Shown here piece after piece: positions 21,583-36,138 of a DNA stretch of 64,000 nucleotides. The translations under genes and the position numbers were made by a program. How positions within the stretch are numbered: position 1 is the first letter of the stretch; each line of letters begins with the position of its first letter. The notes beneath the pieces are model-generated. The model saw only the letters and a list, made by a program, of their open reading frames with translations. It had not been told where the DNA came from and ran no database searches. The DNA is from Streptomyces sp. NRRL F-5126 (GTDB lineage Bacteria > Actinomycetota > Actinomycetes > Streptomycetales > Streptomycetaceae): positions 434,001-498,000 of the forward strand of contig NZ_JOFZ01000012.1 in NCBI RefSeq assembly GCF_000721265.1, written 5' to 3'.

Positions 21583-22396
21583 GGGACTCCTTGGGTGCGG
21601 GGCGGGTGGCGGCGTCGAAGGCCGCGACGGCCTTCGCGAGGCCGCGGGCGCGGGCGTCGAGCAGCAGGCGCCCGGTGTCCGCGTCGGCGTGGGACGCGTC
21701 GTCGGTGGACCCGCCGACGCGGGCCCACTCGCCGTGGCGCTCGGTGGTGAGCCCCGGGTACGGCGGGTTGTCGAACAGGGGTGGCGACTCGACCGGGGTG
21801 CGGGCCGGCACGGGGGCTCGGACGAGTCCCGGGTGCGCGGCGAGCATGAGCGAGGTCTCGAACCACCCGGCGTGGCCGGGGGTGACGGCGGGCCGCTCGG
21901 CGCCGTTGTCGGTGTCGGTGTCGGTGACCGTCCAGTACGAGCAGGCCGCGACGGTGACGCCGGCGCTCTCCGGCCGCAGCGCGAAGCGCTTGACGGCGAG
22001 CCGCATGATCTCGTCGTTGCCGCCGTGGCCGTTGACGATCATGATCCGGCGGCAGCCGCTCGTGACGAGGGAGGCGAGGATGTCGTCGAGCACGGCCGTG
22101 AGGGTCGCGGCGGAGAGCGAGACGGCGGCGGCGAAGAGGTGGTGCGGGCTGTGCCCGTACGGCAGGGCGGGCAGGGTGACGATCTCCGCGACGCCCGCAC
22201 CCTCCTTCTCGTCGGCCAGGATCGCGAGGGCCCGGTCCAGCACCGCCTCGGCGAGGAGGGTGTCGGTGCCGAGCGGCAGGTGGGCGGCGTGCTGCTCCTG
22301 GGAGCCGATGGGCAGCACGGCGATGCCGCCGTCGCCCGCGGCGCGCACCTCGCGCCAGGTCAGCTCGGACAGCTCGGACATTTTTCGTTGGCTCAC
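21569..22396 (-). CDS. Creatininase-family amidohydrolase
   Basis: A 275-residue protein with the creatininase metal site: Glu34 and His36 (GSQEQH), Asp45 (LGTD) and His124 (NGHGGN). Family members open creatinine, deformylate FAPy intermediates or act on cyclic or formylated amides. The start is set at GTG 22396 because GGAG lies nine bases upstream; ATG 22381 has no site. It overlaps the dehydratase gene that follows and is divergent from a ROK-like gene 42 bp away. With the dehydratase and ABC importer nearby, it may cleave an amide of an imported sugar acid or peptide-like compound (inference). Confidence 0.82.
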   Translation of the reverse strand: MSQRKMSELSELTWREVRAAGDGGIAVLPIGSQEQHAAHLPLGTDTLLAEAVLDRALAILADEKEGAGVAEIVTLPALPYGHSPHHLFAAAVSLSAATLTAVLDDILASLVTSGCRRIMIVNGHGGNDEIMRLAVKRFALRPESAGVTVAACSYWTVTDTDTDNGAERPAVTPGHAGWFETSLMLAAHPGLVRAPVPARTPVESPPLFDNPPYPGLTTERHGEWARVGGSTDDASHADADTGRLLLDARARGLAKAVAAFDAATRPAPKESHEDH

Positions 22397-22438
22397 AGTG
22401 CTGTCTCCGGGAATCGCTGACGTGGCAGAGTTCGGCGC

Positions 22439-23395
22439 ATGGCGCAGAGAGGTACGCGGTTGCGGTTGGTCGGGCCCCGGGACGAGTCGCCGGCGTCCGC
22501 GCCGGTCAGGACGCTCGGCGCGGTCGAGCTCGTGCCCGGCCGGGTGCGGGCCGCGGTGCTCGGTGTCTCCGGCCGTGTGCTGGCGCGCGCCGAGACCGCG
22601 TACGCGCCCGACGCGCCGGGCCGTGGCGCCGTGGACGCGGCGCTGGCCGAGGTGGCCGGTGTGTTCACCGGGCACGCGCCGACCGGGATCGGTGTGGCTG
22701 CCGCGGGCATCGTGGACCCGGCGGCTGGCCTGATCGTCGAGGTCAACGACGTACCGGCGCTGCACGGGTATCCGGTGACCGAGCGCCTCGCGGCGCTGAC
22801 GGGCGTGCCGGTGCGCGTGGAGCACCGGGCGCGCCTCCAGGTTCTCGGTGACCGGTGGTTCGGCGCGGGCCGCGGCAGGCGGACGTTCGCGTCGGTGTCG
22901 ACGGGCGAGGTGCTGGGCGTCGGGATCCTGTACGAGGGCGAGGTGCTGGCGCCCCCCGGCGGCCGCAGCGGCGCGCACATGACGGTGACTGCGGGCGGGC
23001 GGCCGTGCACGTGCGGTTCGACGGGCTGCTGGAAGACGGTGGCGACGACGCGGTGGCTCAGGGCGCGCGCCGACGCGCTGGGGCTCGGCGCGGACCGGAC
23101 GCTGGGCTCGCTGGTGTCGGACGGCGACGAGCGTGCGGGGCGGCTCCTCGCGCAGTACGCGGAGAACCTGGTGCTCGGACTCGTCAACGTCCAGCAGTTG
23201 TTCGCGCCAGGTCTCTTCGTGCTGCACGGCGAGGCGAAGGAGGGCGGCGAGCACTTCCGCGCGCTGCTGGAGACGCGCCTGCGGCGGGACGTGGCGGCGT
23301 CGGGCGCGGAGCTGCCGCGCGTGGTGGTCAGCGAGGCCGCGGTGGACGACGTCGCCCTGCTGGGCGGCGCGGGGCTGGTGCTCTCCCACCTGTGA
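22439..23395 (+). CDS. ROK-family protein without kinase residues
   Basis: A 318-residue ROK-fold protein. The ROK zinc site is intact: His180 (GAHM) and Cys190, Cys192, Cys197 (CTCGSTGCW). The phosphate loop DxGGT is replaced by GAVELVPG near 27-34. The catalytic Asp region, normally ENDAN, reads EHRAR (128-132). It is therefore unlikely to phosphorylate sugars. There is no helix-turn-helix. A sugar-sensing or partner-binding role is more likely. It is divergent from the creatininase-family gene and shares its 42-bp promoter region. Confidence 0.78.
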   Translation: MAQRGTRLRLVGPRDESPASAPVRTLGAVELVPGRVRAAVLGVSGRVLARAETAYAPDAPGRGAVDAALAEVAGVFTGHAPTGIGVAAAGIVDPAAGLIVEVNDVPALHGYPVTERLAALTGVPVRVEHRARLQVLGDRWFGAGRGRRTFASVSTGEVLGVGILYEGEVLAPPGGRSGAHMTVTAGGRPCTCGSTGCWKTVATTRWLRARADALGLGADRTLGSLVSDGDERAGRLLAQYAENLVLGLVNVQQLFAPGLFVLHGEAKEGGEHFRALLETRLRRDVAASGAELPRVVVSEAAVDDVALLGGAGLVLSHL

Positions 23396-23419
23396 CGCCC
23401 GCCCCCGCCCGAGGGCGTC
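23394..23419. terminator. Hairpin at the ROK gene stop
   Basis: GACGCCC (23394-23400) and GGGCGTC (23413-23419) form a 7-bp stem with a 12-nt loop beginning within the stop codon. The remaining roughly 190 bp up to the convergent ABC gene show nothing else recognisable. Confidence 0.5.
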
Positions 23420-23612
23420 GGGCTCCGGTCCGCACCGCTGCGCGCCGCCGCCCCGGGCCCACCGTTCACCGGCCCGCGTTGCCCGCAGGGGGGATCGGTC
23501 CTGCGGGGGGCACCGGAGCCCCGGCGCCCATGGCCTACGCCCCGGAGGGCGGCGCGCCGGGCGGGCGTTCGGCAGCGGCCGCGATCCGCACGGCTCCGCC
23601 CGGGTGACCGCC

Positions 23613-24476
23613 TCATCCGGCGACCACTCCCCTGTGCCTGCGGGCCGCGCGCGGGTCGGGGTCGGGGACCGCGGCCAGCAGTTCCCTGGTGTAGGCGTGC
23701 CGTGGCGCACGGAACACCTCCGCCGCGTCCCCCACCTCCACCAGCCGCCCGGCCCGCATCACGGCGACCCGGTCGGCGACCTGGCGCACCACCGCGAGGT
23801 TGTGCGACACGAACACGTAGGTCAGGCCGTGCTCGCGCTGGAGGCGGGCGAGCAGGTCGAGCACGGAGGCCTGGACGGACACGTCGAGCGCGCTCGTCGG
23901 CTCGTCGAGCACCACGAGGCGCGGCGAGAGTGCCAGAGCGCGCGCGATGGAGATGCGCTGGCGCTGCCCGCCGGAGAACTCGTGCGGGTAGCGGTCCTGG
24001 ATCCCGGCGTCGAGACCCACGGAGTCGAGCAGGGCACCCACGCGCTCGCGGAGCCTGGCGCGCGCGCCGCCGCGCCGTCCGCGCATCGCCGGGTCGTGGG
24101 TGACGAGCGGTTCCGCGACGATGTCGGCGACCCGCAGCCGAGGGTTCATGCTGGAGTACGGGTCCTGGAGGACGACCTGCATCTCACGTCGTGTGCGCCG
24201 TAGTTCGGCCGGCGGGAGGGTCGCGAGGTCACGTCCGTCGTACGACACGGTGCCCGCCGTCGGCTCGGTGAGGCGCAGCAGCAGCCGGGTCAGTGTGGTC
24301 TTGCCGCACCCCGACTCGCCCACGAGCGCGAGGGTCTCGCCCTCGCGCACGGCCAGCGACACGTCGCACACCGCCGCCACCCTGGGTCCGCGCCGGCCGC
24401 CGCCGAACTCCTTGTGCAGGCCTTTGAGTTCCAGCAGGGGAACACCGCCCGTGCCGCCGCTCTTACCGCCGCTCAT
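23613..24476 (-). CDS. ABC transporter ATP-binding protein, DppF/OppF type
   Basis: A 287-residue ATPase, last gene of a five-gene Dpp/Opp importer operon. Walker A is GESGCGKTT near 52-60, the Q-loop QDPYSSMNP is typical of DppF, the ABC signature is FSGGQRQR, Walker B is LVVLDEPTSALD and the switch His is in VSHNLAVV. The oligopeptide C-terminal region ends in HAYTRELLAAVPDPDP. Its start overlaps the stop of the preceding ATPase by ATGA. It powers import with the second ATPase. Confidence 0.93.
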   Translation of the reverse strand: MSGGKSGGTGGVPLLELKGLHKEFGGGRRGPRVAAVCDVSLAVREGETLALVGESGCGKTTLTRLLLRLTEPTAGTVSYDGRDLATLPPAELRRTRREMQVVLQDPYSSMNPRLRVADIVAEPLVTHDPAMRGRRGGARARLRERVGALLDSVGLDAGIQDRYPHEFSGGQRQRISIARALALSPRLVVLDEPTSALDVSVQASVLDLLARLQREHGLTYVFVSHNLAVVRQVADRVAVMRAGRLVEVGDAAEVFRAPRHAYTRELLAAVPDPDPRAARRHRGVVAG

Positions 24477-25363
24477 GCCGTGCGCTCCAATCGCGGTGTG
24501 GCCGCGAGCAGCCGCCGTGTGTAGGGGTCCTCGGGCCGCTCGAACACGTCGAGTACGTCTCCGCTCTCGACGATCTCGCCCTGGTTCATCACGGCGACCC
24601 GGTCCGCCGTCTGCGCGACGACGCCCAGGTCGTGCGTGATCAGGACGACCGCCATGCCGTGCCGTGTCTGCAGGGCGACGAGCAGGTCGAGTATCTGCCG
24701 CTGCACGGTGACGTCGAGCGCGGTCGTCGGCTCGTCGGCGATCAGCACGCGCGGCCGGCCGACGAGCGCGGCGGCGATCATCACGCGCTGCCGCAGCCCG
24801 CCCGACAGCTCGTGCGGGTACTGGCGGTAGCGGCGTTCCGCGTCGGGGATGCCGACCTCGTCGAGCGCGGCGACGGCGGCGTCCCGCGCCTCGGCGCGTG
24901 AGGCGCCGCCGTGGTGTCTGAGCACCTCGGCGACCTGCGTGCCCACGCGTTGCAGCGGGTCGAGGCTCGTCATCGGGTCCTGGAAGACCATGGACACCGC
25001 GCTGCCCCTGACGCGCCCGAGCCGCTTGTCCGTACAGGAGAGCAGGTCGTCGCCCTCGAAGAGGATCCGGCCGCCCGTGTAGACGCAGGGCGGCTCAGGG
25101 TTGAGCCGCAGCACGGACAGGGCGCTCGCGGTCTTGCCGCTGCCCGACTCCCCCACCACGGCGAGCGTCTCGCCGGCTGCGACCTGCCAGCTGACGCCGC
25201 GCACCGCGTGCACGGCTCCGCCGTCGAGCCGGAAGTCGACGCTCAGGTCCTCGACGGACAGGACGGGTTCGCCGCGCGGCGCGGACTTCGGCGCCTGCGC
25301 GTGTGCCGGTTTCGGGGCCGGTTTCGGTGCCGGGTCCTGTCCCGGTTTCTGTGTGGGTGTCAT
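24473..25363 (-). CDS. ABC transporter ATP-binding protein, DppD/OppD type
   Basis: A 296-residue ATPase. A Pro/Ala/Lys-rich leader of about 32 residues precedes the nucleotide-binding domain. Walker A is GESGSGKTA, the Q-loop [10 protein letters not shown], the signature LSGGLRQR, Walker [13 protein letters not shown] and the switch His in ITHDLGVV. The C-terminal segment [16 protein letters not shown] is the oligopeptide/dipeptide transporter extension. ATGA overlaps join it to the permease upstream and the ATPase downstream. The Gly in LSGGL is a normal DppD variant. Confidence 0.93.
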
Positions 25364-26277
25364 CGGCGGTACGCCTTCGGGTCCGCGACGTCCCGCAGGG
25401 CGTCTCCAGTGATGTTGACGGCGAGCGAGGTGAGCATCAGGGCCACGCCGGGGAAGACCGCGACCCACCAGGAGGTGCCCAGGTAGAGCTGGCCGTCGGC
25501 GAGCATGGAGCCCCAGGTGACGGTCTCCTTCGGCACGCCGAGGCCGAGGTAGCTGAGGGACGCCTCGGCGACGATGGCGGCCGCGACGTGCAGGGTGCCG
25601 ATCGTGGCGAGCGGCGCCATGACGTTGGGCAGCAGGTGGCGGCGCATGATGCCGGCGTCGGTCACACCGATCGCGCGCGCCTCGGTGACGAAGTCGCGCG
25701 TGCGCAGCGACAACACCTCGGAGCGTACGACGCGTGCGTACGACACCCAGCCGGTGAAGCCGAGCACGAGGATCACGTACCACAGGCCCGAGCCGAGGAA
25801 GCCGACGATGGCGAGCGCCAGCAGGATGGCGGGGAAGGCGAGTTGGACGTCGGCCAGGCGCATCAGCACCTTGTCGAGCCAGCCGCCGAGGTATCCGGAC
25901 GCGAGCCCGACCGCGGTGCCGATCACACCGGCGAGCAGCGCCGCGCTCGCACCCACGAGCAGCGACACGCGCGAGCCGTAGATGACCCGCGAGAGCATGT
26001 CGCGGCCGAGCTGGTCGGTGCCGAGGAGGTGTGCGCTGCTGCCGCCGTGCTCCCAGGCGGGGGGACGCAGCCGCGTGAGGAGGTCCTGCGCATTGGGGTC
26101 GTCCGGGGCGATGAGCGGCGCGAACACGGCCGCGATCAGCATGAGCGCGAGTACGGCGAGCGCGGCGACGGCGAGCTTGTTGTGCAGCAGGGCGCGTACG
26201 GCGACGGCCCTCGTGCTGCGCGATCCGGCCCGCCGCCGCGGTGGTGCGGTGGTGGCCGATGCGGAGGTGGCGGTCAA
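25360..26277 (-). CDS. ABC transporter permease, DppC/OppC type
   Basis: A 305-residue inner-membrane permease. The N-terminal TM and OppC_N segment (LIAPDDPNAQDL) are followed by DQLGRDMLSRVIYGSRVSL and five more hydrophobic segments. The EAA loop reads EARAIGVTDAGIMRRHLLPNV. The likely start is TTG 26277, overlapping the TGA of the upstream permease as TTGA, with GAGGA seven bases upstream. It forms the channel with the DppB-type partner. Confidence 0.92.
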   Translation of the reverse strand: MTATSASATTAPPRRRAGSRSTRAVAVRALLHNKLAVAALAVLALMLIAAVFAPLIAPDDPNAQDLLTRLRPPAWEHGGSSAHLLGTDQLGRDMLSRVIYGSRVSLLVGASAALLAGVIGTAVGLASGYLGGWLDKVLMRLADVQLAFPAILLALAIVGFLGSGLWYVILVLGFTGWVSYARVVRSEVLSLRTRDFVTEARAIGVTDAGIMRRHLLPNVMAPLATIGTLHVAAAIVAEASLSYLGLGVPKETVTWGSMLADGQLYLGTSWWVAVFPGVALMLTSLAVNITGDALRDVADPKAYRR

Positions 26278-27287
26278 CGGGACGTCCTCACTCTCGGGTC
26301 GAGGAGGCTGTAGGAGAGGTCGACGAGCAGGTTCACCACGACGAACACCGCGGCGAAGAACATGACGGTGGCCTGCACGAGCGGGAAGTCGCGGTTGGAG
26401 ATGGCCTCGATGGTCAGCTGTCCCACGCCCGGCCAGGAGAAGACCTGTTCGGTGAGGATGGCGCCGCCGAGCAGGCTGCCCACTTCAAGGCCGACCACGG
26501 TGATCACGGGGAGGGACGCGTTGCGCAGCGCGTGCACGAAGACGATCTTCAGCGGGCCGAACCCCTTGGCCCGTGCGGTGCGTATGTGGTCGGAGGAGAG
26601 CACGTCGATCAGCGACGATCGCAGCAGTCTGGCGACGACGGCGACGGAGTAGACGGCGAGTGTGACGGACGGCAGCACCAGGTTGGCGAACGTGCCGTAG
26701 CCGGAGGCCGGCAGCGCGTGCAGTCCGACGGCGAAGACGAGGATGAGCAGGATGCCGACCCAGAACGGCGGTGTGGACTGGCCGAGCAGGACGCCCGTCA
26801 TCACACCGCGGTCCGCTGCCCGGCCGCGGCGCATCGCCGCGATGATGCCCGCGGGCACGGCGACGCCGAGGGTCACCACGATGGCTCCGGCGGCGAGTTC
26901 GAGGGTGGCGGGCAGCCGGTCGGCCAGCACGCGGCTGACGGGCTCGTTGTAGAAGAGGGAGTTGCCGAAGTCGAAGCGCGGCAGGCCCCACAGGTAGTCC
27001 AGGTACTGCGTGATCAGGGGCCGGTCGAGCCCCAGGCTCGCGCGGAGCGTGGCCTCCTGGTGTGCGGTGGCGTCGGGCGGCAGCAGCAGCTTGACGGGGT
27101 CGCCGGAGAGCCGTACGAGGAAGAACGACACGGTGGCGGTGCACAGCAGCACCAGCAGCGCGGTGCCGACGCGGGTGAGCACCATGCGCACGAGGTGGCC
27201 GCCGCCGCCGCGCCGCGCTGCGGCCCCGGGTCCTGTACCGCCCGGCGCTCCCGCGGAGGGGGCAGGGCCGAGTGTCACGTCCGTCAT
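26274..27287 (-). CDS. ABC transporter permease, DppB/OppB type
   Basis: A 337-residue inner-membrane permease. Markers are FFLVRLSGDPVKLL with a long periplasmic loop GLDRPLITQYLDYLWG after the first helix, then FGNSLF, and the EAA loop ARAKGFGPLKIVFVHALRNA. About six transmembrane segments are present. ATG 27287 overlaps the stop of the binding-protein gene as ATGA. The N-terminus has a Gly/Ala-rich cytoplasmic extension of about 30 residues. Confidence 0.93.
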   Translation of the reverse strand: MTDVTLGPAPSAGAPGGTGPGAAARRGGGGHLVRMVLTRVGTALLVLLCTATVSFFLVRLSGDPVKLLLPPDATAHQEATLRASLGLDRPLITQYLDYLWGLPRFDFGNSLFYNEPVSRVLADRLPATLELAAGAIVVTLGVAVPAGIIAAMRRGRAADRGVMTGVLLGQSTPPFWVGILLILVFAVGLHALPASGYGTFANLVLPSVTLAVYSVAVVARLLRSSLIDVLSSDHIRTARAKGFGPLKIVFVHALRNASLPVITVVGLEVGSLLGGAILTEQVFSWPGVGQLTIEAISNRDFPLVQATVMFFAAVFVVVNLLVDLSYSLLDPRVRTSR

Positions 27288-28867
27288 CGGGACACCTCCG
27301 CGCTCGCCATCTTCAGCACGCCCGCGGGGCCCGGTTTCCAGTGCGGGCGCCGGTTGCGGGCGTAGATGTTGTCGATCTGGTAGAGCGGCACGAAGGGCGC
27401 CTCGTCCTGGATCAGCCGCTGGAGTCGGGAGAAGGCGCGGCGGCGCTCGCTCGGTGAGACGGCGAGCTCCTCCACGTCGACGAGGTGGTCGGCCTCCTTG
27501 TTGTGCCAGCGGCTCTGCCTGCGGTCGCTGCGCACGTTGGACTGGAGCATGGACTCGCCGTCCAGGGTCCACACGGTGCTCGCGGCGAGGTACATGGGGC
27601 CGAGGGCTCCGTGGTCGTTCGAGGTCAGCCGGTCCGAGTAGGTGCCCGGGTCGATCAGGTCGACCTTGGCGTGGACACCGGCGCGTGCGAGGAGCCCGGA
27701 GACGGCCTCGGCGACGTTGGAGTCGATGTTGGATGCGGTGAGCCGGGTGGTGAAGCCGTGCGGGTAGCCCGCCTCGGACAGCAGCCTGCGTGCGGTGGCC
27801 ACGGAGCGGGTGAAGGGCTTGACGTCCGGGTCGAAGCCGAAGGCGCCGCGCGGGATCATCGCGGGCACCTCGGTGGCCTTGCCGCCGAGCACGGCCTTGA
27901 TGAGCAGCGGCACGTCCACGGCGTGGTTGAGCGCCTGGCGCACGCGCTTGTCGTGCAGCGGACCCTTGTCGAGTGTGTTGAGGGAGAGGTAGGAGGTGCG
28001 GATGCCGGTGTAGCTGTCGAGAAAGACACCGGTGTATCCGTCCAGTTGCTGCGCAGCGTCAGGAGTGAGGCCGGTGACGAGGTCGACGCCGCCGCTCTGC
28101 AGGGCGGCGAGCGAGGACGACGCGTTGGGCGCCGGGCTGAAGACGAGTTCGTCGACGTCCGGGCGGCCTGCCCAGTGGTGCGCGTATGCCTTCATGCGCA
28201 GCTGATGGTCGCGCTGCCACTCGGCGAACGTGAACGGGCCTGTTCCGACGGGGTGTTGTGCGAAGCCGTGGTCGCCGACGCGGGCGAGGTAGCGGGGTGG
28301 CACGACGACGCCGCCGAAGAGGGAGACCTTCTCGGGAATGATCGGGTCGTGCAGTGAGGTGTGCAGGTCGACGGTGTGCTTGTCGACGACGGACACGCCC
28401 TTGACGTAGCGCAGTTCGACGATGGGCGACTTGGTGGCGGGGTCGAGCAGCCGCTCGATGGAGAACTTGACCGCGTCGGCGTCGCACGGCTCGCCGTTGT
28501 GGAAGGTGACCCCGGGCCTGAGCGTGAAGCGCCAGGTGAGCGGGGAGACGACCTTCCAGGTCAGGGCGAGCCGCGGGTGCAGCCGGCCGTCGGCGCCGCG
28601 GGTGGTGAGGGTGTCGAACATGTTGATCAGGGCGTTCATCGACGTCATGTCGCCCTGCTTCTGCGGGTCCATCGTCTCCGGGTCGCCGGTCTGGGACACC
28701 CGCAGGACGTTGCCGACACGGCTCGCGGGGTCGGCGCCGCAGCCGGTGAGCAGGGCGGGCGCGGCGAGCGCCGGCGCGAGGAGGGCCCCGAGGCGCAGCA
28801 CGTCGCGACGGGGCGGCCCGTCGCGGCGCGCACGTCCCGGCCGTATTCGTTCCATTGAACAGCACAT
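27284..28867 (-). CDS. Extracellular solute-binding lipoprotein, family 5 (peptide/nickel type)
   Basis: A 527-residue SBP_bac_5 protein, the receptor of the ABC importer. The N-terminus has a twin-arginine-like PRRDVLRLG motif, a hydrophobic core and a lipobox LLTGC near residue 43, so it is exported and lipid-anchored. Family markers are the TWRFTLRPGVTFHNGEP segment and VRQALNHAVD. ATG 28867 and ATG 28855 are both possible starts; neither has a good ribosome site. First gene of the importer operon, divergent from IclR. The ligand could be a peptide or an opine-, sugar- or amide-like compound. Confidence 0.9.
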   Translation of the reverse strand: MCCSMERIRPGRARRDGPPRRDVLRLGALLAPALAAPALLTGCGADPASRVGNVLRVSQTGDPETMDPQKQGDMTSMNALINMFDTLTTRGADGRLHPRLALTWKVVSPLTWRFTLRPGVTFHNGEPCDADAVKFSIERLLDPATKSPIVELRYVKGVSVVDKHTVDLHTSLHDPIIPEKVSLFGGVVVPPRYLARVGDHGFAQHPVGTGPFTFAEWQRDHQLRMKAYAHHWAGRPDVDELVFSPAPNASSSLAALQSGGVDLVTGLTPDAAQQLDGYTGVFLDSYTGIRTSYLSLNTLDKGPLHDKRVRQALNHAVDVPLLIKAVLGGKATEVPAMIPRGAFGFDPDVKPFTRSVATARRLLSEAGYPHGFTTRLTASNIDSNVAEAVSGLLARAGVHAKVDLIDPGTYSDRLTSNDHGALGPMYLAASTVWTLDGESMLQSNVRSDRRQSRWHNKEADHLVDVEELAVSPSERRRAFSRLQRLIQDEAPFVPLYQIDNIYARNRRPHWKPGPAGVLKMASAEVSR

Positions 28868-28885
28868 CCGTTCCGTCAGATGGAA
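28849..28885. promoter_or_regulatory. Candidate IclR operator elements
   Basis: GTTC-CATT-GAAC (28849-28860) and TTCC-GTCAGAT-GGAA (28871-28885) are short dyads in the divergent region between the binding-protein gene and iclR. Their TTCC/GGAA arms are reminiscent of IclR-family sites. The arms are only four bases long, so this is tentative. Confidence 0.3.
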
Positions 28886-28909
28886 TGCGGTTGGGTTAAG
28901 CTAAGCGAC

Positions 28910-29740
28910 ATGGGGAAACCGGTCAACACCCGCCGCAGCGAGCAGGAGCCCGTCAAGGGCCCGGTCGACAAGGCGATGGAGGTGCTCGAAGCGCTGGTCG
29001 AGGGGGGTGGCGGCCCGCACCGCCTCGGCGAGATCGCCCGCCGCACGGGCCTGACGAAACCGACCGTCCACCGCCACCTGCGCACCATGGCCGACTACGG
29101 CTTCGCCCAGGTGGCCGAGGGCGGCAGCTACCGACCCGGCCCCCGGCTCCTCGGGCTCGCCGCCGCCGCGCTCGACGCGGGCCCCGGGCTCGGCCTCGCC
29201 CGTCCCGTGCTGGCGGATCTGCGGCAGCGCACCGGGCTCCTCGCGTACTACGCGGTGCGCGACGCGGACGATGCCGTCTTCCTGGCCCTGTCCGAGCCCT
29301 CGCGGGAGTACCGGATGAGCGCGCGCCCGGGCGGCCGCGCGCCGCTGTACTGCAGCGCGGCCGGGCTCGCGATGCTGTCGGCGCTGCCGCCCGCCGAGGT
29401 CGGCGACGTGCTGGACGGCGCGGGCCCGCTGCCCGCGCGCACGCCGCACACGCTGACGGATCCGGCGGCGCTGCGGGCCGAGTTGGCCGACTGCGGGCGG
29501 CGCGGGTACGCGGTGGACGACGAGTTCGAGGAGCAGGACGCACGCGCGGTGGCCGCGCCGGTGGTCGGCGCGGACGGCCGCGCGGTGGGCGCGATCGCGG
29601 TGCGCGGGCTGACGTTCGCTCTGGACGCGGCGGGCGTCGAGCTGTTCGGCCCGATGGTGCGGGCGGCGGCGAAAGCGGTCTCGTCAGGTATGGCCGGGGT
29701 GCCGAGGCTCGGTCTTGTGGCGGACGGGGGCGTCGCGTGA
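28910..29740 (+). CDS. IclR family transcriptional regulator
   Basis: A 276-residue regulator. The winged helix-turn-helix at about 20-80 reads LGEIARRTGLTKPTVHRHLRTM, followed by the IclR effector domain with VAAPVVGADGRAVGAIAV near the end. The first part is LGEIARRTGLTKPTVHRHL. It is divergent from the ABC importer operon and translationally coupled (GTGA) to a serine hydrolase gene. By arrangement it should control both. Its effector is probably the imported compound or a breakdown product. Confidence 0.92.
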   Translation: MGKPVNTRRSEQEPVKGPVDKAMEVLEALVEGGGGPHRLGEIARRTGLTKPTVHRHLRTMADYGFAQVAEGGSYRPGPRLLGLAAAALDAGPGLGLARPVLADLRQRTGLLAYYAVRDADDAVFLALSEPSREYRMSARPGGRAPLYCSAAGLAMLSALPPAEVGDVLDGAGPLPARTPHTLTDPAALRAELADCGRRGYAVDDEFEEQDARAVAAPVVGADGRAVGAIAVRGLTFALDAAGVELFGPMVRAAAKAVSSGMAGVPRLGLVADGGVA

Positions 29741-30792
29741 ACGAGCTGCGGGCGATCCTGGAGCGGGGCAGGGCCGAACGGGTCTACTCGGCCGCGGCCT
29801 GGTCGGTGGGCACGGCGGACGAGGTGCTGGACCGCGGGTGGCTCGGCACCCGCGCCTGGGACGAGGGCGCGCCCGAGGCAGACGGCGGCGCGCTGTGGGA
29901 CCTGGCATCGGTGACGAAGCCGATCGTGGGACTCGCGGTTATGGCGCTCGTGGACCGGGGCCGGCTCGCCCTGGCCGACACGGTCGCCGCGCATCTGCCC
30001 CGGTACGCCGCGACCGACAAGGCGCGCCTCACGGTCGGTCAACTGCTCACCCACACCTCGGGATTGCCGGGTCAGGTACCGATGTACCGCGATCACCCCA
30101 CCCGCGAGTCGCTGCTGGCCGCACTCGGCACGCTCACGCTCACCGGCCCGCCCGGCACCCGGGTGGCCTACTCCTCCCAGGGGTTCATGCTGCTGGGGCT
30201 GATCGCCGAGGCGGCATCGGGACAGTCGCTGGACGCGCTGGTCGCCGAAGCGGTGACCGGCCCCCTGTCCATGGCGGGCACCGGATTCGCGCCGGACGCG
30301 GTGGGACGGGCGCGCGCGGTGGCGACGGAGCACTGCCCGTGGCGCGGCAGGACCGTCGTCGGCGAGGTGCACGACGAGAACGCGGCCGTGCTGGGCGGCG
30401 TGTGCGGGCACGCGGGCCTGTTCGCGCCGCTCGGGGACATGGAGCGGCTCGGCATCTCGCTCGCGGGCGGCGCGCGCGAGATGCTGCGCCCCGGCACGTA
30501 CGCACGGATGACGGCGCCGCACACGGACGGCCTCGGCCTGCGCAGGTGCCTCGCGTGGCAGGGGCTCGACGCGGTGGGCTCGCCGGTCGGCACGGCCTTC
30601 GGGCCCGCCTCGTACGGGCACACGGGCTTCACGGGCACGAGTGTCTGGGTCGACCCGGACACCGGCCTCTACGCCGTCCTGCTGACGAACCGGGTGCACC
30701 CGACACGGCAGGGCGACTCCATCGGCGCGGTGCGCCGCGCGTTCCACGACGCGGCGCACGCGGCGTACGCGGGACAGGCGCACGCGCGGTAG
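29737..30792 (+). CDS. Serine hydrolase, beta-lactamase class C fold
   Basis: A 351-residue protein with the penicillin-binding fold. The nucleophile motif is Ser58-Val-Thr-Lys61 (ASVTK), the second motif Tyr145-Ser-Ser147 and a C-terminal YGHTGFTGT supplies the HTG in place of KTG. There is no signal peptide, so it acts in the cytoplasm. Family members are esterases, D-amino-acid amidases or peptidases as often as beta-lactamases. It follows iclR with a GTGA overlap and probably processes an ester or amide taken up by the importer (inference). Confidence 0.85.
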   Translation: MNELRAILERGRAERVYSAAAWSVGTADEVLDRGWLGTRAWDEGAPEADGGALWDLASVTKPIVGLAVMALVDRGRLALADTVAAHLPRYAATDKARLTVGQLLTHTSGLPGQVPMYRDHPTRESLLAALGTLTLTGPPGTRVAYSSQGFMLLGLIAEAASGQSLDALVAEAVTGPLSMAGTGFAPDAVGRARAVATEHCPWRGRTVVGEVHDENAAVLGGVCGHAGLFAPLGDMERLGISLAGGAREMLRPGTYARMTAPHTDGLGLRRCLAWQGLDAVGSPVGTAFGPASYGHTGFTGTSVWVDPDTGLYAVLLTNRVHPTRQGDSIGAVRRAFHDAAHAAYAGQAHAR

Positions 30793-31016: not shown

Positions 31017-32087
31017 TTGTACTACAGACAGATCTCGACGCGGCGCGCCCGGCTGGCCGGTGCCTGCGCCCTCGCCCTGGCCACCACCGCCGCACTCGCC
31101 GCGTCGAACGCGCACGCGGCCGCCCCCGCCGCACCGGGGCCCCAGGGACTGTCCGCGGCGTCCGCCGGGTCGCTGGCGGCCCGGTTCGGCGACACCTCCC
31201 AGGGCTCGTTCTACGACTCCGCCCACCGGCGGCTCGTCGTCAACGTCCTGGACGAGTCGGCCGCCGACACCGTGCGAGCCGGCGGGGCGACGCCGCGGCT
31301 GGTGTCCAACTCGCTCGCTGCCCTCAGGTCCGCCACCGCGACACTCAAGGCGAAGGCGAACATCGTCGGCACTGCGTGGGTCATCGACCCGAGGGCGGAC
31401 AAGGTCGTGGTGACGGCGGACCGCACGGTGGACGACGACAGGCTGGCGCGGCTGAACAAGATCGTGGGCGACCTGGGCAGCCGGGCGGTGCTCGAAAGGA
31501 CCCCGGGCAAGCTGTCCTTGTCCATCGCGGGTGGCGACGCCATCTGGGGTGACACCGCCCGCTGCTCCCTGGGCTTCAACGTGGTCAAGGACGGCGAGCC
31601 CTACTTCCTGACGGCCGGTCACTGCGGAAAGGCCGTCAAGACCTGGTCGTCCACGCAGGACGGGGCGAAGATCGCGCAGACCGAGACCGTGAGCTTCCCG
31701 ACGAACGACTATTCGATGGCGAAGTACACGGACACCGCGGCCCACCCCAGCGAGGTGGACCTCTACAACGGCACGTCCCAGCCGATCACCGAGGCCGGGA
31801 CCCCGCTGGTGGGCCAGTCCGTCGAGCGCAGCGGGTCCACGACGAAGACCCACACCGGCAAGGTGACGGGCCTCGACGCCACCGTCAACTACCAGGAGGG
31901 CACGGTGAGCGGCCTCATCAAGACCGACGTGTGCGCCGAGCCGGGCGACAGCGGCGGCCCCCTGTTCGACTCGTCCACGGCGCTGGGTCTGACGTCCGGC
32001 GGAAGCGGCGACTGCACGTCCGGGGGCGAGACGTACTTCCAGCCGGTCCCGGAGGCGTTGACGGCCCTGGGGGCGTCGATCGGCTGA
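31017..32087 (+). CDS. Streptogrisin-like S1 serine protease, prepro form
   Basis: A 356-residue secreted chymotrypsin-fold protease. A Sec signal peptide (1-34, ending NAHAAA), an alpha-lytic-type propeptide (about 45-168) and the mature domain from about Ile170 are seen. Catalytic residues are His202 (TAGHCG), Asp231 (TNDYSM) and Ser312 (GDSGGP). Cys183-Cys203 and Cys306-Cys333 should form the two family disulfides. The TTG start at 31017 has GAAGGG upstream. The propeptide assists folding and is removed by self-cleavage. It is separate from the following operon by a 139-bp gap with a palindrome. Confidence 0.93.
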   Translation: MYYRQISTRRARLAGACALALATTAALAASNAHAAAPAAPGPQGLSAASAGSLAARFGDTSQGSFYDSAHRRLVVNVLDESAADTVRAGGATPRLVSNSLAALRSATATLKAKANIVGTAWVIDPRADKVVVTADRTVDDDRLARLNKIVGDLGSRAVLERTPGKLSLSIAGGDAIWGDTARCSLGFNVVKDGEPYFLTAGHCGKAVKTWSSTQDGAKIAQTETVSFPTNDYSMAKYTDTAAHPSEVDLYNGTSQPITEAGTPLVGQSVERSGSTTKTHTGKVTGLDATVNYQEGTVSGLIKTDVCAEPGDSGGPLFDSSTALGLTSGGSGDCTSGGETYFQPVPEALTALGASIG

Positions 32088-32115: not shown

Positions 32116-32136
32116 AACTCTGCAACATGCAGAGTT
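32116..32136. promoter_or_regulatory. 21-bp perfect palindrome upstream of the peptide operon
   Basis: AACTCTGCA and TGCAGAGTT are perfect 9-bp arms around ACA. The element starts 29 bp after the protease stop and ends 90 bp before the small-peptide start. It is more AT-rich than its surroundings and has no T run after it, which favours an operator over a terminator. No regulator gene is adjacent. Confidence 0.65.
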
Positions 32137-32226: not shown

Positions 32227-32415
32227 ATGGCTTCCGTCGAACCCGTGACCCGCGACCTCACTGAGCTTCAGGACACGGAACTCGAAGCGGCGCTCAACCC
32301 GCTCGAGGCGGCCGGCACCTTCCGTGACACCCGTGAGTGCGCGGCACTCGCCCTGGCCGCCGGCGGTGGACAGGTCCTGCTGTCGCCCCCGACCCCGCGG
32401 CCGAAGAAGGGCTGA
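32227..32415 (+). CDS. 62-residue peptide, candidate RiPP precursor
   Basis: The start is placed at ATG 32227, with AAAGGGG nine bases upstream; ATG 32218 is too close to that site. The N-terminal part is acidic and helical (LTELQDTELEAALNPLEAAG), like a leader peptide, and the C-terminal part is uncharged to basic: LALAAGGGQVLLSPPTPRPK ending KKG. The first segment is LTELQDTELEAALNPLEAAG. There is no signal peptide. It is the first gene of a coupled operon with four larger genes. A ribosomally made precursor is the leading interpretation; a small regulatory or chaperone-like subunit is the alternative. One Cys (38) is present, so lanthionine rings are not expected. Confidence 0.6.
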   Translation: MASVEPVTRDLTELQDTELEAALNPLEAAGTFRDTRECAALALAAGGGQVLLSPPTPRPKKG

Positions 32416-32424
32416 CGGGATTCC

Positions 32425-33186
32425 ATGACGGAGCAGTCAGGCACCTCGACCCGTCTGACGGGCGCGGTGCAGGACCTCGCGTTCGAGGTGGTCTCCGCCC
32501 TCCGGGGCGGGGACCACGTCGGCGGTGTGTGCGGGGGCGCCGGCATCGGCACGGACGACGGCCCCGGCCTCGCCGCCGTACGGGTACTCGGCTGTGACGT
32601 GCTGCTGCCGAGCACCATGCTCGGCCGCCCCGCCGACGCGGCCGATCTCGCGCTCTTCCAGCGGGCCGTCTCGGTCTTCCCCCCGGCGCAGGACGCCCCC
32701 GCCGTCTCGGCGTGGAGCCACTGGGCCATGACGCGTACCCTGCTGCGGCTCGCCGGCACCACCGACGCGGTCGGCACGTACACCCGGCCGGGCTCTCCCC
32801 CGGCCGCGGGCCCGGCACCGGGCGACGGGGCGGAGGCGGCCGCCGAGCCCGGCACCGGCTGGCTGGACGACGCGCCCTGGCAGACGCTGACCCACCAGCT
32901 CGCCGTGCTCGCCGCCCTCGCCGTACCGGGCGCCGACTGCGGCGTCGCGCGCGTCGCGGAACGCAGGCCGGTGGACGTCGCGCGGGGCTTCGTGCGCGCC
33001 GTACGCCGCCGCGACTGGCTGCAGGCCGCGGGCGCGGGGAGGTGGCTGTCCGCCACCGGAGGCGCACCGGACACCCTGGGCCTCGACGCGGGCCTCGCCT
33101 TCGTCGCGCAGATGGGCGCGCCGGACGCGCGCGTCGCGCTGCACGTCCACGTCGCGCAGGAGCTGCGGGCGGGGACCGCCGCGTGA
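32425..33186 (+). CDS. Protein of unknown function in the peptide operon
   Basis: A 253-residue protein, not recognised. It is helical, with a flexible Pro/Gly/Ala-rich insertion around 115-140 (PGSPPAAGPAPGDGAEAAAE), and has no signal peptide or membrane segment. It starts nine bases after the peptide stop and its end overlaps the next gene as GTGA. A tail DARVALHVHVAQEL contains two His. It may be an adaptor or a divergent relative of the next two proteins; similarity is too weak to claim. Confidence 0.65.
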   Translation: MTEQSGTSTRLTGAVQDLAFEVVSALRGGDHVGGVCGGAGIGTDDGPGLAAVRVLGCDVLLPSTMLGRPADAADLALFQRAVSVFPPAQDAPAVSAWSHWAMTRTLLRLAGTTDAVGTYTRPGSPPAAGPAPGDGAEAAAEPGTGWLDDAPWQTLTHQLAVLAALAVPGADCGVARVAERRPVDVARGFVRAVRRRDWLQAAGAGRWLSATGGAPDTLGLDAGLAFVAQMGAPDARVALHVHVAQELRAGTAA

Positions 33187-34121
33187 CCTCCCCCGGGGCG
33201 GTCAGAGCCGTCGGCGAGGCCGCACTCGGCTGGATCCGCGACCATCGCGCGGACTTCCGGCTCGGCGCGGACGCGCTCGACACGGCCGGGGACGTCAACC
33301 GCACGTGGAAACCGCTCGGTGAACTCGCGCAGGTCAGCCTCTCCGTGCGCCGGGCGACCAGCGCCGGGGACCCCCTGCACGACACCGCGGACGACCTGCT
33401 GCGCTACGCATGGGCGCTGACCGGTGAGGGCGCCTGCTTCCACGACGTCCTGCGCCTCGAACCCTTCGCCACGTACGCCCTGGAGGTCTACGCCGCCTTC
33501 GCGGCCGCGGGCCTGCGGCACGCCGCGTTCGAGGAGCTCGCGGCGACGATGGCGGGCACGCGCGGCTGGCGGCTGACGGAGCAGCAGCCGAACCGCCGCC
33601 TGGGCGTGCTGAACTCGGAGCGCCGGGTCGGCCTGCCCCAGCACCGCTCCCCCGAGCAGGCGCTGCGCGCCACCTGGCTCGGCGGACTGCCCGAGCCGTG
33701 GACGTTCGAGACGGCCTCCGGTTACACGCTCACCCACGTGGTCTTCCACCTCACCGACTGGGGCGGCGACGCCTCGCGCGTCCCCGGCGACATCGCCTCG
33801 TACCTCGGCCTGTGGCTGCCCGCCTGGCTCGACTCCTGCGCGGAGGACGACCAGTGGGACCTGCTCGCCGAACTCCTCGCCGTGGCTGCCGCGTTGCCCG
33901 AGCCCCCGGCACCGGCGCTGCTGCACGGCGCCTGGTCGGCGCTTGCCGCGGCGCAGGACCACGGCGGCGGCCTGCCCGAGACCGGTCCCGGCCGCCACGG
34001 GCGCGCAGGGCGGCGCGGCTTCGCCGACTGCTACCACTCGACCCTGATGGCCGCCTTCGCCGCCGCGCTCGCGCTGGGCGGGCACGACCCCCGTCGAGAC
34101 AGTGAGGGAGCCCCGGCATGA
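33183..34121 (+). CDS. Helical FHLTDWG-motif protein, paralogue 1
   Basis: A 312-residue soluble helical protein, unknown function. It shares with the next gene product the motifs KPLGE (43-47), THVVFHLTDWG (184-194), LWLPAWLD, WDLLAELL and a C-terminal YHSTLMAAF. The repeated W..L.AAQ..GG.P pattern near the end resembles the turn motifs of alpha/alpha-toroid enzymes such as terpene cyclases and LanC proteins, which suggests that fold (inference). His189 and Asp192 are candidate active-site residues. GTG 33183 overlaps the previous stop. Confidence 0.68.
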   Translation: MTSPGAVRAVGEAALGWIRDHRADFRLGADALDTAGDVNRTWKPLGELAQVSLSVRRATSAGDPLHDTADDLLRYAWALTGEGACFHDVLRLEPFATYALEVYAAFAAAGLRHAAFEELAATMAGTRGWRLTEQQPNRRLGVLNSERRVGLPQHRSPEQALRATWLGGLPEPWTFETASGYTLTHVVFHLTDWGGDASRVPGDIASYLGLWLPAWLDSCAEDDQWDLLAELLAVAAALPEPPAPALLHGAWSALAAAQDHGGGLPETGPGRHGRAGRRGFADCYHSTLMAAFAAALALGGHDPRRDSEGAPA

Positions 34122-35104
34122 CCACCACCACGGCGGCCGCCACGGCCGCCACCTCCCTGCTCCACTCGGTGGGCGCGCAGGCCGCGGAGTGGCTGTACGC
34201 GCACCGCGACGGCTTCCGCCTGGAACCCGGCGTCGACCCGGAGACGGGATTCCTCGAACGGTTCAAGCCCATCGGCGAGGTCGCCATGATCGGCTCGGTC
34301 CTCTTCCGCGAGGGCGTCGCGGGCTCGCGCCAGGCGGACCTCGTCAGGCGGCTGCTCGACCACGTGTGGCACGAGACGCTGGACAGCGGCCACCTGCTCG
34401 TACGGGGGCAGCGCATCGAGCCCATCTCGCCGATCCCGTTCGAGGTGTACCTGCCGTTTCGCGAGCTGGGGTACGCGGACCCCGAGGTCGAGCGTGCGGT
34501 GCTGATGAACCAGCGGTGGCGCGGCTGGGCCGCCTTCGAGGCCAAGCCCGTACGGCGGCTCGGCCTCGCCCTGTTCCGGCGGCGGTTCGAGGCCGCCGCG
34601 GCGCCCGACGGCGCGGGCCGCACGGAGCGGGCGGACGAGGCGGACGCCGACTTCCGCGCCGCCCTGCGCGAGACGTGGCTGGCGCGCCGCCCGGAACCGT
34701 GGACCGTCGAGGGACACATCGGCTACGACATCACGCACACCGTCTTCCACCTCACGGACTGGGGCAGGAACCCGCGGGGGCTGCCGGATGACCTGGCACG
34801 CTACCTCGCGCTGTGGCTGCCCGCCTGGCTGGACGACTGGCTCGACCTGGAGCGCTGGGACCTGCTCGGGGAACTGCTCGTCGTCGACGCGTGCCTGCCC
34901 GAGCCGACGCTCGACGCACGCGCCTGGGAGGCCTTCGCCGCGGCGCAGCGGCGCGACGGGGCCATGCCGGCCGTGCGCACCATGCCGGAGGGCAGCCCCG
35001 ACGAGGTCTTCGACATCGTGTACCACCCGACGCTCGTCGCCGCCTTCGCCTCCACCCTCGCCACCTCGCGCGCCATGGCGCGCCTGACCGGCGACCCGGC
35101 ATGA
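34118..35104 (+). CDS. Helical FHLTDWG-motif protein, paralogue 2
   Basis: A 328-residue soluble paralogue of the preceding protein. Shared motifs include RFKPIGEVA (near 48), THTVFHLTDWG (206-216), LWLPAWLDDWLDLERWDLLGELLV and YHPTLVAAF. The longer one begins LWLPAWLDDW. It has an inserted Ala/Asp-rich acidic segment around 158-178. ATG 34118 overlaps the previous stop as ATGA, and its own stop overlaps the next start. Two paralogues side by side suggest a heteromeric complex or successive steps on the same substrate (inference). Confidence 0.68.
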   Translation: MTTTTAAATAATSLLHSVGAQAAEWLYAHRDGFRLEPGVDPETGFLERFKPIGEVAMIGSVLFREGVAGSRQADLVRRLLDHVWHETLDSGHLLVRGQRIEPISPIPFEVYLPFRELGYADPEVERAVLMNQRWRGWAAFEAKPVRRLGLALFRRRFEAAAAPDGAGRTERADEADADFRAALRETWLARRPEPWTVEGHIGYDITHTVFHLTDWGRNPRGLPDDLARYLALWLPAWLDDWLDLERWDLLGELLVVDACLPEPTLDARAWEAFAAAQRRDGAMPAVRTMPEGSPDEVFDIVYHPTLVAAFASTLATSRAMARLTGDPA

Positions 35105-36138
35105 CGGACACGGCGGGCCGGACGCGGACGCTCCTCGACACGGCCGGCGACCCGGCCCCGGCGCTGGACGAAGCGGTCCTCGCGATGGACGCGCCCGACG
35201 CGGTCGTCGCGTACTCCCGTGCCGGCGTGCGCACCGTACGCCACGGCGGTACGGCGCCGCCCCCGCCCGAGCCGCGGGAGGCCCTGCGCTATGAGGCGGG
35301 GTCGGCGTCCAAGCCGTACACGGGGCTGCTGCTTGAGCGGCTGGCTCGGGACGGCGCCGTGGACCCCGGCACGCCGGCCGCCGCGCTCCTCGCCCCTGGA
35401 CGCCCCGTCGGCCGCGACCCCATCACGCTGACGCACCTGATCACCCACACCTCCGGGCTCCCGCCGCTGCCCTCCGACCTGTACCCGGGGGCGGTGCGGC
35501 ACTGGCTGACCAACCCCTACGCGCACTACGGCGCCGACCGCGTGAGCGCCGCCTTCCTGCGGGCCCGCCCGCGCCACCGTCCCGGCACCCGGTGGCGCTA
35601 CTCGAACTTCGGCGTCGCCGTCCTCGGCCAGGCGCTCGTGGCCGCCACCGGGAAGCCGTGGGCGCAGCTGGTGACCGGCGGCGTGCTCGCGCCCCTCGGC
35701 CTCACCGGGACCGCACTGTCCCCCGCGGGCCCCGGCATCGACGCCACCGGCCACGGCGCGGACGGTACGAAACCCACACCGCCGCTGCTCATCGGCGGCT
35801 TCGAGGCGGCGGGCGCGGTCCGCGCCACCCCCGGCGACCTGCTGTCGTTCCTGGAGGCCCACCTGCGCCCGGCCGGGCCGCTGCGCGAGGCCCTGCTCGC
35901 GGTGCGCCGCCCGCTCCTGCGCCGCGGGCGCGGCCACCTGCACGTCCACACCCTCACGTGGTTCCGCCACGAGACGGACCGCGGCCCCCTCTACTTCCAC
36001 GCGGGGGCCACCAGCGGCCAGCAGACCTTCCTCGGGTTCGCCCCCGGCACGGGCACCGCGCTGGCCGCGACCTGCACGCGCCGCTGCCGCCTGCGCGACA
36101 CCTTCGTGGCGACGGCGTACGGCCTGCTCGGGGGGTGA
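35101..36138 (+). CDS. Serine hydrolase, beta-lactamase class C fold, in the peptide operon
   Basis: A 345-residue protein with Ser68-Ala-Ser-Lys71 (GSASK), Tyr167-Ser-Asn169 (RYSNFG) and a C-terminal FHAGATSG motif in the place of KTG. ITHTSGLPPLP is typical of the family. There is no signal peptide, so it should act on an intracellular substrate. Its start overlaps the previous stop as ATGA. In a peptide biosynthetic operon it could act as a leader or D-amino-acid peptidase or an acyl transferase; a self-resistance function is another option. Confidence 0.82.
   Translation: MTDTAGRTRTLLDTAGDPAPALDEAVLAMDAPDAVVAYSRAGVRTVRHGGTAPPPPEPREALRYEAGSASKPYTGLLLERLARDGAVDPGTPAAALLAPGRPVGRDPITLTHLITHTSGLPPLPSDLYPGAVRHWLTNPYAHYGADRVSAAFLRARPRHRPGTRWRYSNFGVAVLGQALVAATGKPWAQLVTGGVLAPLGLTGTALSPAGPGIDATGHGADGTKPTPPLLIGGFEAAGAVRATPGDLLSFLEAHLRPAGPLREALLAVRRPLLRRGRGHLHVHTLTWFRHETDRGPLYFHAGATSGQQTFLGFAPGTGTALAATCTRRCRLRDTFVATAYGLLGG

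What the first reader, a model, noticed from the sequence alone, without database searches (positions are those of the whole stretch)
32227..36138. Candidate new peptide (RiPP-like) system: 62-residue peptide, three unknown proteins and a beta-lactamase-fold hydrolase
Five genes form one operon; the last four are joined by GTGA or ATGA overlaps and follow a small acidic-then-basic peptide gene. The peptide looks like a leader-core precursor with a GGG followed by QVLLSPPTPRPKKG. Two partners are paralogues with an FHLTDWG motif and turn patterns suggestive of an alpha/alpha-toroid enzyme fold. No known RiPP enzyme (LanB/C/M, radical SAM, YcaO, lasso) is present, so if this makes a peptide product it uses unfamiliar chemistry.
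Basis: partly seen in the sequence, partly recalled or inferred. Interest (0 to 1): 0.75.

Follow-up and report, generated by a model that had tools for sequence, protein, structure and literature searches.

The report
Conserved Streptomyces peptide operon with DUF6895
A five-gene block, widespread in Streptomyces, encodes a small peptide with an almost unchanging tail plus enzymes that may flip its amino acids to the mirror-image form and cut or ring-close it, making it a probable new type of modified ribosomal peptide.

Summary
In detail: a 62-residue peptide gene (A, 32227-32415) and four translationally coupled genes (B-E, to 36138). C and D are not wholly unknown: both are DUF6895 (PF21836). 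E is an S12/PF00144 serine hydrolase with an intact active site. B has no family. A-B-C-D-E is complete in 75 of 80 named relatives; the other 5 run into contig ends. A sister subtype with one DUF6895 keeps peptide-B-DUF6895-E, and a third DUF6895 context is a radical-SAM cluster with its own short peptide. The peptide is under purifying selection: its last 12 residues hardly change, while a six-residue box just before them varies. A 2026 paper, seen by title only, reports a DUF6895 epimerase in lasso-peptide modification; this genome has no lasso leader peptidase. Best reading: a lasso-independent RiPP in which the toroid enzymes convert L- to D-residues near the tail and E then cleaves or cyclises. 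No chemistry is shown. My searches of one open library listed no description of this operon.

The parts
32116..32136 (.). Perfect palindrome AACTCTGCA-ACA-TGCAGAGTT upstream of the operon; candidate operator
   Evidence: One match in the window with up to 3 mismatches, none in 100 shuffles. Same palindrome at the same offset in the closest relative (L113), not found as an exact palindrome in the other 76 of 78 upstream regions. Function unknown.
32227..32415 (+). A: 62-aa peptide, proposed precursor
   Evidence: No family; 238 protein clusters at E <= 1, the query's own included; codon-level purifying selection; single copy in the genome
32356..32373 (+). Codons 44-49 of A (AAGGGQ): variable box
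   Evidence: 45 distinct hexapeptides in 77 relatives, 69% Gly/Ser/Thr/Ala
32374..32412 (+). Codons 50-62 of A (VLLSPPTPRPKKG): near-invariant tail
   Evidence: pN/pS 0.054 for LLSPPTPRPKKG
32425..33186 (+). B: 253-aa helical protein of no known family; proposed precursor-binding partner
   Evidence: No hits; model pLDDT 86.9, no strands, residues 113-134 under 50; no convincing fold match; found in all 80 named loci
33183..34121 (+). C: DUF6895 protein, more divergent paralogue; proposed peptide epimerase
   Evidence: PF21836 E 9.2e-85; conserved residues; tree
34118..35104 (+). D: DUF6895 protein, more conserved paralogue; proposed peptide epimerase
   Evidence: PF21836 E 2.1e-76; alpha/alpha toroid model, pLDDT 91.8; D-types form one clade (99/100), sister to the solo type (98/97)
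35101..36138 (+). E: S12/PF00144 serine hydrolase without evident signal peptide; proposed D-residue-directed peptidase or cyclase
   Evidence: PF00144 E 5.5e-44; SxxK (Ser68), YxN and HxG in 79 of 79 aligned sequences, window included; solved relatives

Best explanation
A is the precursor of a ribosomally made, post-translationally modified peptide. B is probably the partner that holds the precursor, since neither its model nor that of D shows an RRE-like fold. The two DUF6895 alpha/alpha-toroid enzymes C and D epimerise one or more L-residues to D, most plausibly in or beside the conserved Leu-Leu-Ser-Pro stretch shared with the one-DUF6895 subtype. E, a serine hydrolase of the DD-peptidase / D-peptidase / SurE superfamily that is probably cytosolic, then recognises the new D-residue and either cleaves there, releasing the Pro-rich basic tail, or closes a ring. 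Shown: gene order, coupling, conservation, selection, predicted toroid fold of D, intact E active site. Inferred: that A is the substrate, that C/D are epimerases, which residue is flipped, the role of B, and that E acts on D-residues. The confidence given is for precursor plus epimerisation; E's step, taken alone, I put at about 0.45.
For: A-B-C-D-E complete in 75 of 80 named loci and A in 51 of 51 tandem-pair loci among 60 chosen ones (50 by tblastn, L071 by inspection; in L067 A is fused in frame to B). B-DUF6895-E in order in 60 of 60. In the one-DUF6895 subtype B was found in 33 of 34 and E in 31 of 34 loci (the query locus L074 included), and a short peptide with a hydrophobic-SPK-like tail in 28 of 34 (that tail was the search filter). 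A third DUF6895 context, five loci, has a short acidic peptide and conserved partners which in L093, the one scanned, are a radical SAM protein, an MFS transporter and a subtilase. The title of Shi et al. 2026 names a DUF6895 family epimerase in lasso peptide modification. E's solved relatives include D-Ala carboxypeptidases, alkaline D-peptidase, D-amino acid amidase, ClbP and 6KSU; 6KSU is SurE, for which a C-terminal D-residue is obligate and D-Leu native (PMC11735501, passages). E motifs 79 of 79.
Against: No product or modification is shown. The epimerase report was seen only as a title; whether its enzyme resembles C or D is unknown. None of 21 DUF6895 places in 17 genomes lay within 150 kb of a lasso leader peptidase on the same contig (draft contigs hide others), so I never saw the lasso-type member. 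PF00144 also holds beta-lactamases: 31 of the 42 solved relatives carry that name. Some SurE-like cyclases (WolJ, Ulm16) accept a C-terminal Gly, so this superfamily does not always need a D-residue. Tail invariance and a flexible variable box are not the usual conserved-leader/variable-core plan. No transporter is encoded in the conserved block. The motif Asp is lost in both DUF6895 copies of L071 and is Asn in one copy of L035.
Confidence: 0.5

Rival explanations
1. A is modified and processed, but not by epimerisation: the toroid enzymes do another reaction, for instance at Cys38 or on the Pro-rich tail, and E is an ordinary leader or follower peptidase.
For: Cys38 is the same in all 78 peptides aligned. 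The closest folds to D include terpene cyclases and glycoside-acting toroids as well as sugar 2-epimerases. Fold alone gives no reaction.
Against: Only 2 of the 28 peptides found for the sister subtype contain any Cys, and not at the same place, and one double-type peptide outside the 78 (L054) has Ser at position 38, so Cys chemistry is unlikely to be the common function. The only function for DUF6895 that my searches turned up is epimerase (a title).
Confidence: 0.2
2. A is an unmodified small partner protein (adaptor, inhibitor or membrane-associated subunit) of enzymes that act on some other metabolite.
For: The tail is near-invariant; a hydrophobic stretch is followed by basic residues; solo-type peptides reach a mean best 19-residue hydropathy of 1.36 (28 peptides).
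Against: The window value of 1.13 and the double-type mean of 0.99 (77 peptides) are low for a membrane helix; DUF6895 also recurs beside other short peptides, including in a radical-SAM cluster.
Confidence: 0.2
3. A constant antimicrobial: the Pro-rich basic tail is released by E and acts like a proline-rich antimicrobial peptide on other cells.
For: The composition of the tail resembles, from memory only, proline-rich antimicrobial peptides; solo-type tails are Pro/Lys-rich too (where such tails were the search filter).
Against: No transporter or immunity gene in the conserved block; the tail is nearly constant across species, which is unusual for an antagonism system (general knowledge).
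Confidence: 0.07

Closest known systems
DUF6895 epimerase of a lasso-peptide pathway (Shi et al., ACS Catal. 2026; title only, in the reference list of PMC13352647)
   Same: Same protein family by name (PF21836), acting on a ribosomal peptide
   Different: No lasso leader peptidase in this genome; two DUF6895 copies in tandem; B and an S12 hydrolase beside them
Lasso-peptide epimerase MslH / MS-271
   Same: Post-translational epimerisation of a ribosomal peptide (PMC10406935, start of abstract seen)
   Different: C and D are PF21836; MslH was not compared with them; no lasso leader peptidase here
PBP-type thioesterases (SurE, WolJ, PenA)
   Same: E belongs to the same broad serine hydrolase superfamily; 6KSU (SurE) is among its sequence matches
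   Different: Those offload nonribosomal peptides; E sits with a small peptide gene
PQQ and mycofactocin precursor systems (recalled, no call)
   Same: Short precursor with an invariant part and a fixed set of enzymes
   Different: Those use radical SAM enzymes and PqqD-type binding; neither is among the five genes here

Membership tests
DUF6895 (PF21836) | Score above the curated Pfam cut-off over the full domain | tested here: met
   C 284.9 and D 257.5 bits against 23.8, almost full length
S12 / PF00144 serine hydrolases | SxxK, YxN and HxG/KTG active-site motifs | tested here: met
   Present in the window and in 79 of 79 aligned sequences; PF00144 E 5.5e-44
S12 enzymes acting on D-residues | D-residue at the scissile or acyl position | not testable with these tools
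   Relatives by sequence only
RiPP systems in general | Short ribosomal peptide gene conserved beside a fixed set of candidate modifying enzymes | tested here: met
   75 of 80 loci complete; purifying selection on the peptide
RiPP systems in general | Conserved leader and variable core | tested here: inconclusive
   Variable N-terminus, conserved middle, variable six-residue box, near-invariant tail
RiPP systems in general | The peptide is chemically modified | not testable with these tools
   Needs mass spectrometry and chiral analysis
Lasso peptides | Lasso leader peptidase (PF13471) | tested here: not met
   No match in the window's genome; the same search finds it in 130 of 295 same-genus genomes
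Lasso peptides | Asparagine-synthetase-like lasso cyclase | not tested
   Not searched genome-wide; not among the 18 window proteins scanned
RRE-dependent RiPPs | Winged-helix RiPP recognition element in a partner protein | tested here: inconclusive
   Models of B and D have no strands of 3 or more residues and no such Pfam match; C and E were not modelled and no RRE-specific tool was run

The most novel reading that the evidence does not exclude
A ribosomal counterpart of the SurE route: DUF6895 toroids install a D-residue (for example D-Leu) in the Leu-Leu-Ser stretch, and E uses it as acyl donor to cut off the Pro-rich tail and close a heterochiral macrocycle of nearly constant sequence, made by a large part of Streptomycetaceae as a physiological factor rather than a strain-specific antibiotic.
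Probability: 0.15. Interest if true: 0.87.

Novelty: new variant of a known kind. Interest (0 to 1): 0.66.

Why it matters
DUF6895 occurs in 130 of 295 sampled same-genus genomes and 57 of 101 sampled genomes of the family, yet in the hits listed the operon's A, B and D proteins are named hypothetical or DUF6895, apart from stray labels such as 'DUF397' for one A and 'Acyl-CoA dehydrogenase' for one B. If the peptide is epimerised without lasso machinery, this is a common, lasso-independent RiPP type with two cooperating toroid enzymes and a hydrolase suited to D-residues, and with a tail so constant that the product may have a housekeeping or signalling role. It would also give ribosomal peptides a possible D-residue-triggered cyclase.

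Full report
What is there. Five genes on the + strand fill 32227-36138: A (62 aa), B (253 aa), C (312 aa), D (328 aa) and E (345 aa). B/C share GTGA, C/D and D/E share ATGA, and A ends 9 bp before B. C and D match DUF6895 (PF21836) at 9.2e-85 and 2.1e-76, and E matches PF00144 at 5.5e-44; A and B match nothing in Pfam or NCBIfam at E <= 1. PHROGs and PADLOC add nothing under E 0.06 for A-D. Downstream lie two CrcB genes; upstream is a trypsin-like protease gene at 31017-32087.

Conservation of the block. A scan of a named genome collection with a DUF6895 alignment found 376 relatives and kept the best 80 loci, ranked by likeness to the window's C and so weighted towards the tandem-pair type. 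Nearly all are Streptomyces, with one Streptantibioticus and one Kitasatospora record; the closest is S. montanisoli. All five genes occur in order on one strand in 75 of 80; the other 5 (L127, L129, L134, L144, L181) run into a contig end where the missing gene should be. By my own gene calls, four-base overlaps are kept at B/C in 69 of 80, C/D in 79 of 80 and D/E in 67 of 78. Among 60 unnamed same-genus loci, picked from the places printed and therefore not a random sample, all 51 with a DUF6895 pair carry A (50 by tblastn, L071 by inspection; in L067 A is fused in frame to B), and all 60 have B-DUF6895-E in order.

Distribution. DUF6895 is found in 130 of 295 same-genus genomes (129 over the cut-off, the window's own included), in 57 of 101 sampled family genomes and 11 of 17 genera there, and in 7 of 396 genomes of a phylum-wide draw, where the 6 over the cut-off are all of the window's genus. 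The window's genome has only this pair and one copy of A.

The peptide. In 78 aligned peptides (77 relatives plus the window) the part before EAAL varies (pN/pS 1.14, with uncertain alignment), the middle part EAAL to ALAL is constrained (0.29), and the tail LLSPPTPRPKKG is nearly frozen (0.054); these are pooled proportions over all pairs, not corrected for tree shape. Cys38 is the same in all 78, though one unnamed locus outside that set, L054, has Ser. Directly before the tail sits a six-residue box with 45 different sequences in 77 relatives, 69% Gly, Ser, Thr or Ala. So the expected leader-core layout is not what is seen: the constant part is the end. The box reads more like a flexible linker than a selected core.

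Sister systems. Loci with one DUF6895 keep the plan short peptide-B-DUF6895-E: of 34 loci examined (the query locus L074 included), B was found in 33, E in 31, and a peptide of the type SDAPLYxPED...LLLSPKPPKxR in 28. The hydrophobic-SPK tail was the search filter, so the tail likeness is partly built in; the upstream SDAP-like box was not. In a tree of 60 DUF6895 proteins, D-types form one clade (99/100), solo types one (100/97), and these two are sisters (98/97) under midpoint rooting; C-types need two changes, and the window's C has a longer end branch than its D (0.49 against 0.30). My inference is that D keeps the older activity and C is the divergent partner. A third context (five loci, L093-L097) has two DUF6895 genes, one of them fused to a glycosyltransferase-like half in L093-L095, an SARP-type regulator, and a short acidic peptide (42-49 residues; 70 as called in L095) ending in C-V/I-x-N-N-S-x-x-L-like sequence. 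In L093, the one locus scanned with Pfam, the partners are a radical SAM protein, an MFS transporter and a subtilase. DUF6895 proteins thus recur beside short peptide genes with different partner enzymes. Other DUF6895 loci (6 of the 20 in L093-L112) fit none of these plans.

Not a lasso system. The lasso leader peptidase family PF13471 is absent from the window's genome, while the same search finds it in 130 of 295 same-genus genomes. In 17 genomes searched for both families none of 21 DUF6895 places was within 150 kb of a PF13471 place on the same contig (read by eye; different contigs cannot be judged). The lasso cyclase was not searched.

What E is. E has SxxK at Ser68, YxN and HxG, present in 79 of 79 aligned sequences. 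Of 13 N-termini (12 printed and the window's) none shows an evident signal peptide to the eye; no signal-peptide tool was run. Its sequence matches among solved structures (42 distinct at 1e-5) include D-Ala carboxypeptidases, an S12 peptidase, alkaline D-peptidase, D-amino acid amidase, ClbP and 6KSU; 31 of the 42 carry beta-lactamase in their name. A review (PMC11735501, passages read) identifies 6KSU as SurE and states that a C-terminal D-residue is obligate for SurE, with D-Leu native, but also that WolJ and Ulm16 accept a C-terminal Gly. E is therefore a plausible reader of a D-residue, not a proven one.

Mechanism proposed. B holds the precursor; C and D flip residues in or near the Leu-Leu-Ser-Pro stretch; E acts at the D-residue to release the basic Pro-rich tail or to cyclise. 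Shown: operon, conservation, predicted fold of D, active site of E. Inferred: substrate, reaction, site, order, role of B. My estimates: modified ribosomal peptide about 0.75, epimerisation by C/D about 0.6, E acting on the D-peptide about 0.45; the stated 0.5 is for precursor plus epimerisation together. The product's constancy argues for a physiological role.

Novelty. RiPPs with epimerases are a known kind; a lasso-independent system of two DUF6895 proteins plus an S12 hydrolase is not described in anything my searches listed, with the caveat that two of those lists were cut and most subscription papers were not searchable.

Noticed in passing
L093-L097 (e.g. L093:1967-13977, minus strand): A different DUF6895 cluster in five loci: SARP-type regulator, a 63-73-aa (82 as called in L096) and a 42-49-aa (70 as called in L095) peptide, the latter acidic and ending in C-V/I-x-N-N-S-like sequence, two DUF6895 (one fused to a glycosyltransferase-like half in L093-L095); in L093 also a radical SAM protein, MFS transporter and subtilase. 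Looks like a separate RiPP cluster.
   Followed up: partly
window 31017-32087 and L113-L192: A trypsin-like (alpha-lytic type) protease gene lies near the operon in 62 of 80 named loci; where placed relative to A it is downstream and convergent 57 times and upstream and co-directional 3 times. Could be lineage synteny or a functional link.
   Followed up: partly
window 32116-32136: Perfect 9-bp inverted repeat AACTCTGCA-ACA-TGCAGAGTT upstream of A, shared exactly only with S. montanisoli among 78 upstream regions.
   Followed up: partly
window 20455-30792: A gene group with an enolase-superfamily enzyme, a creatininase-family amidohydrolase, peptide-type ABC transporter parts, an IclR regulator and a second PF00144 hydrolase; possibly peptide uptake and use. 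Not tested for linkage to the operon.
   Followed up: no
L100:7281-7418 (-) and L112:6162-6359 (+): Other DUF6895 genes with a short ORF (45 and 65 aa) directly upstream, of visibly different sequence.
   Followed up: no
L071:4460-6387: Both DUF6895 copies have lost the Asp of the TDWG motif, and the peptide ends ...SSECAALLLLAGAVLLAPPPPRPKKG; a natural test of which residues matter.
   Followed up: no
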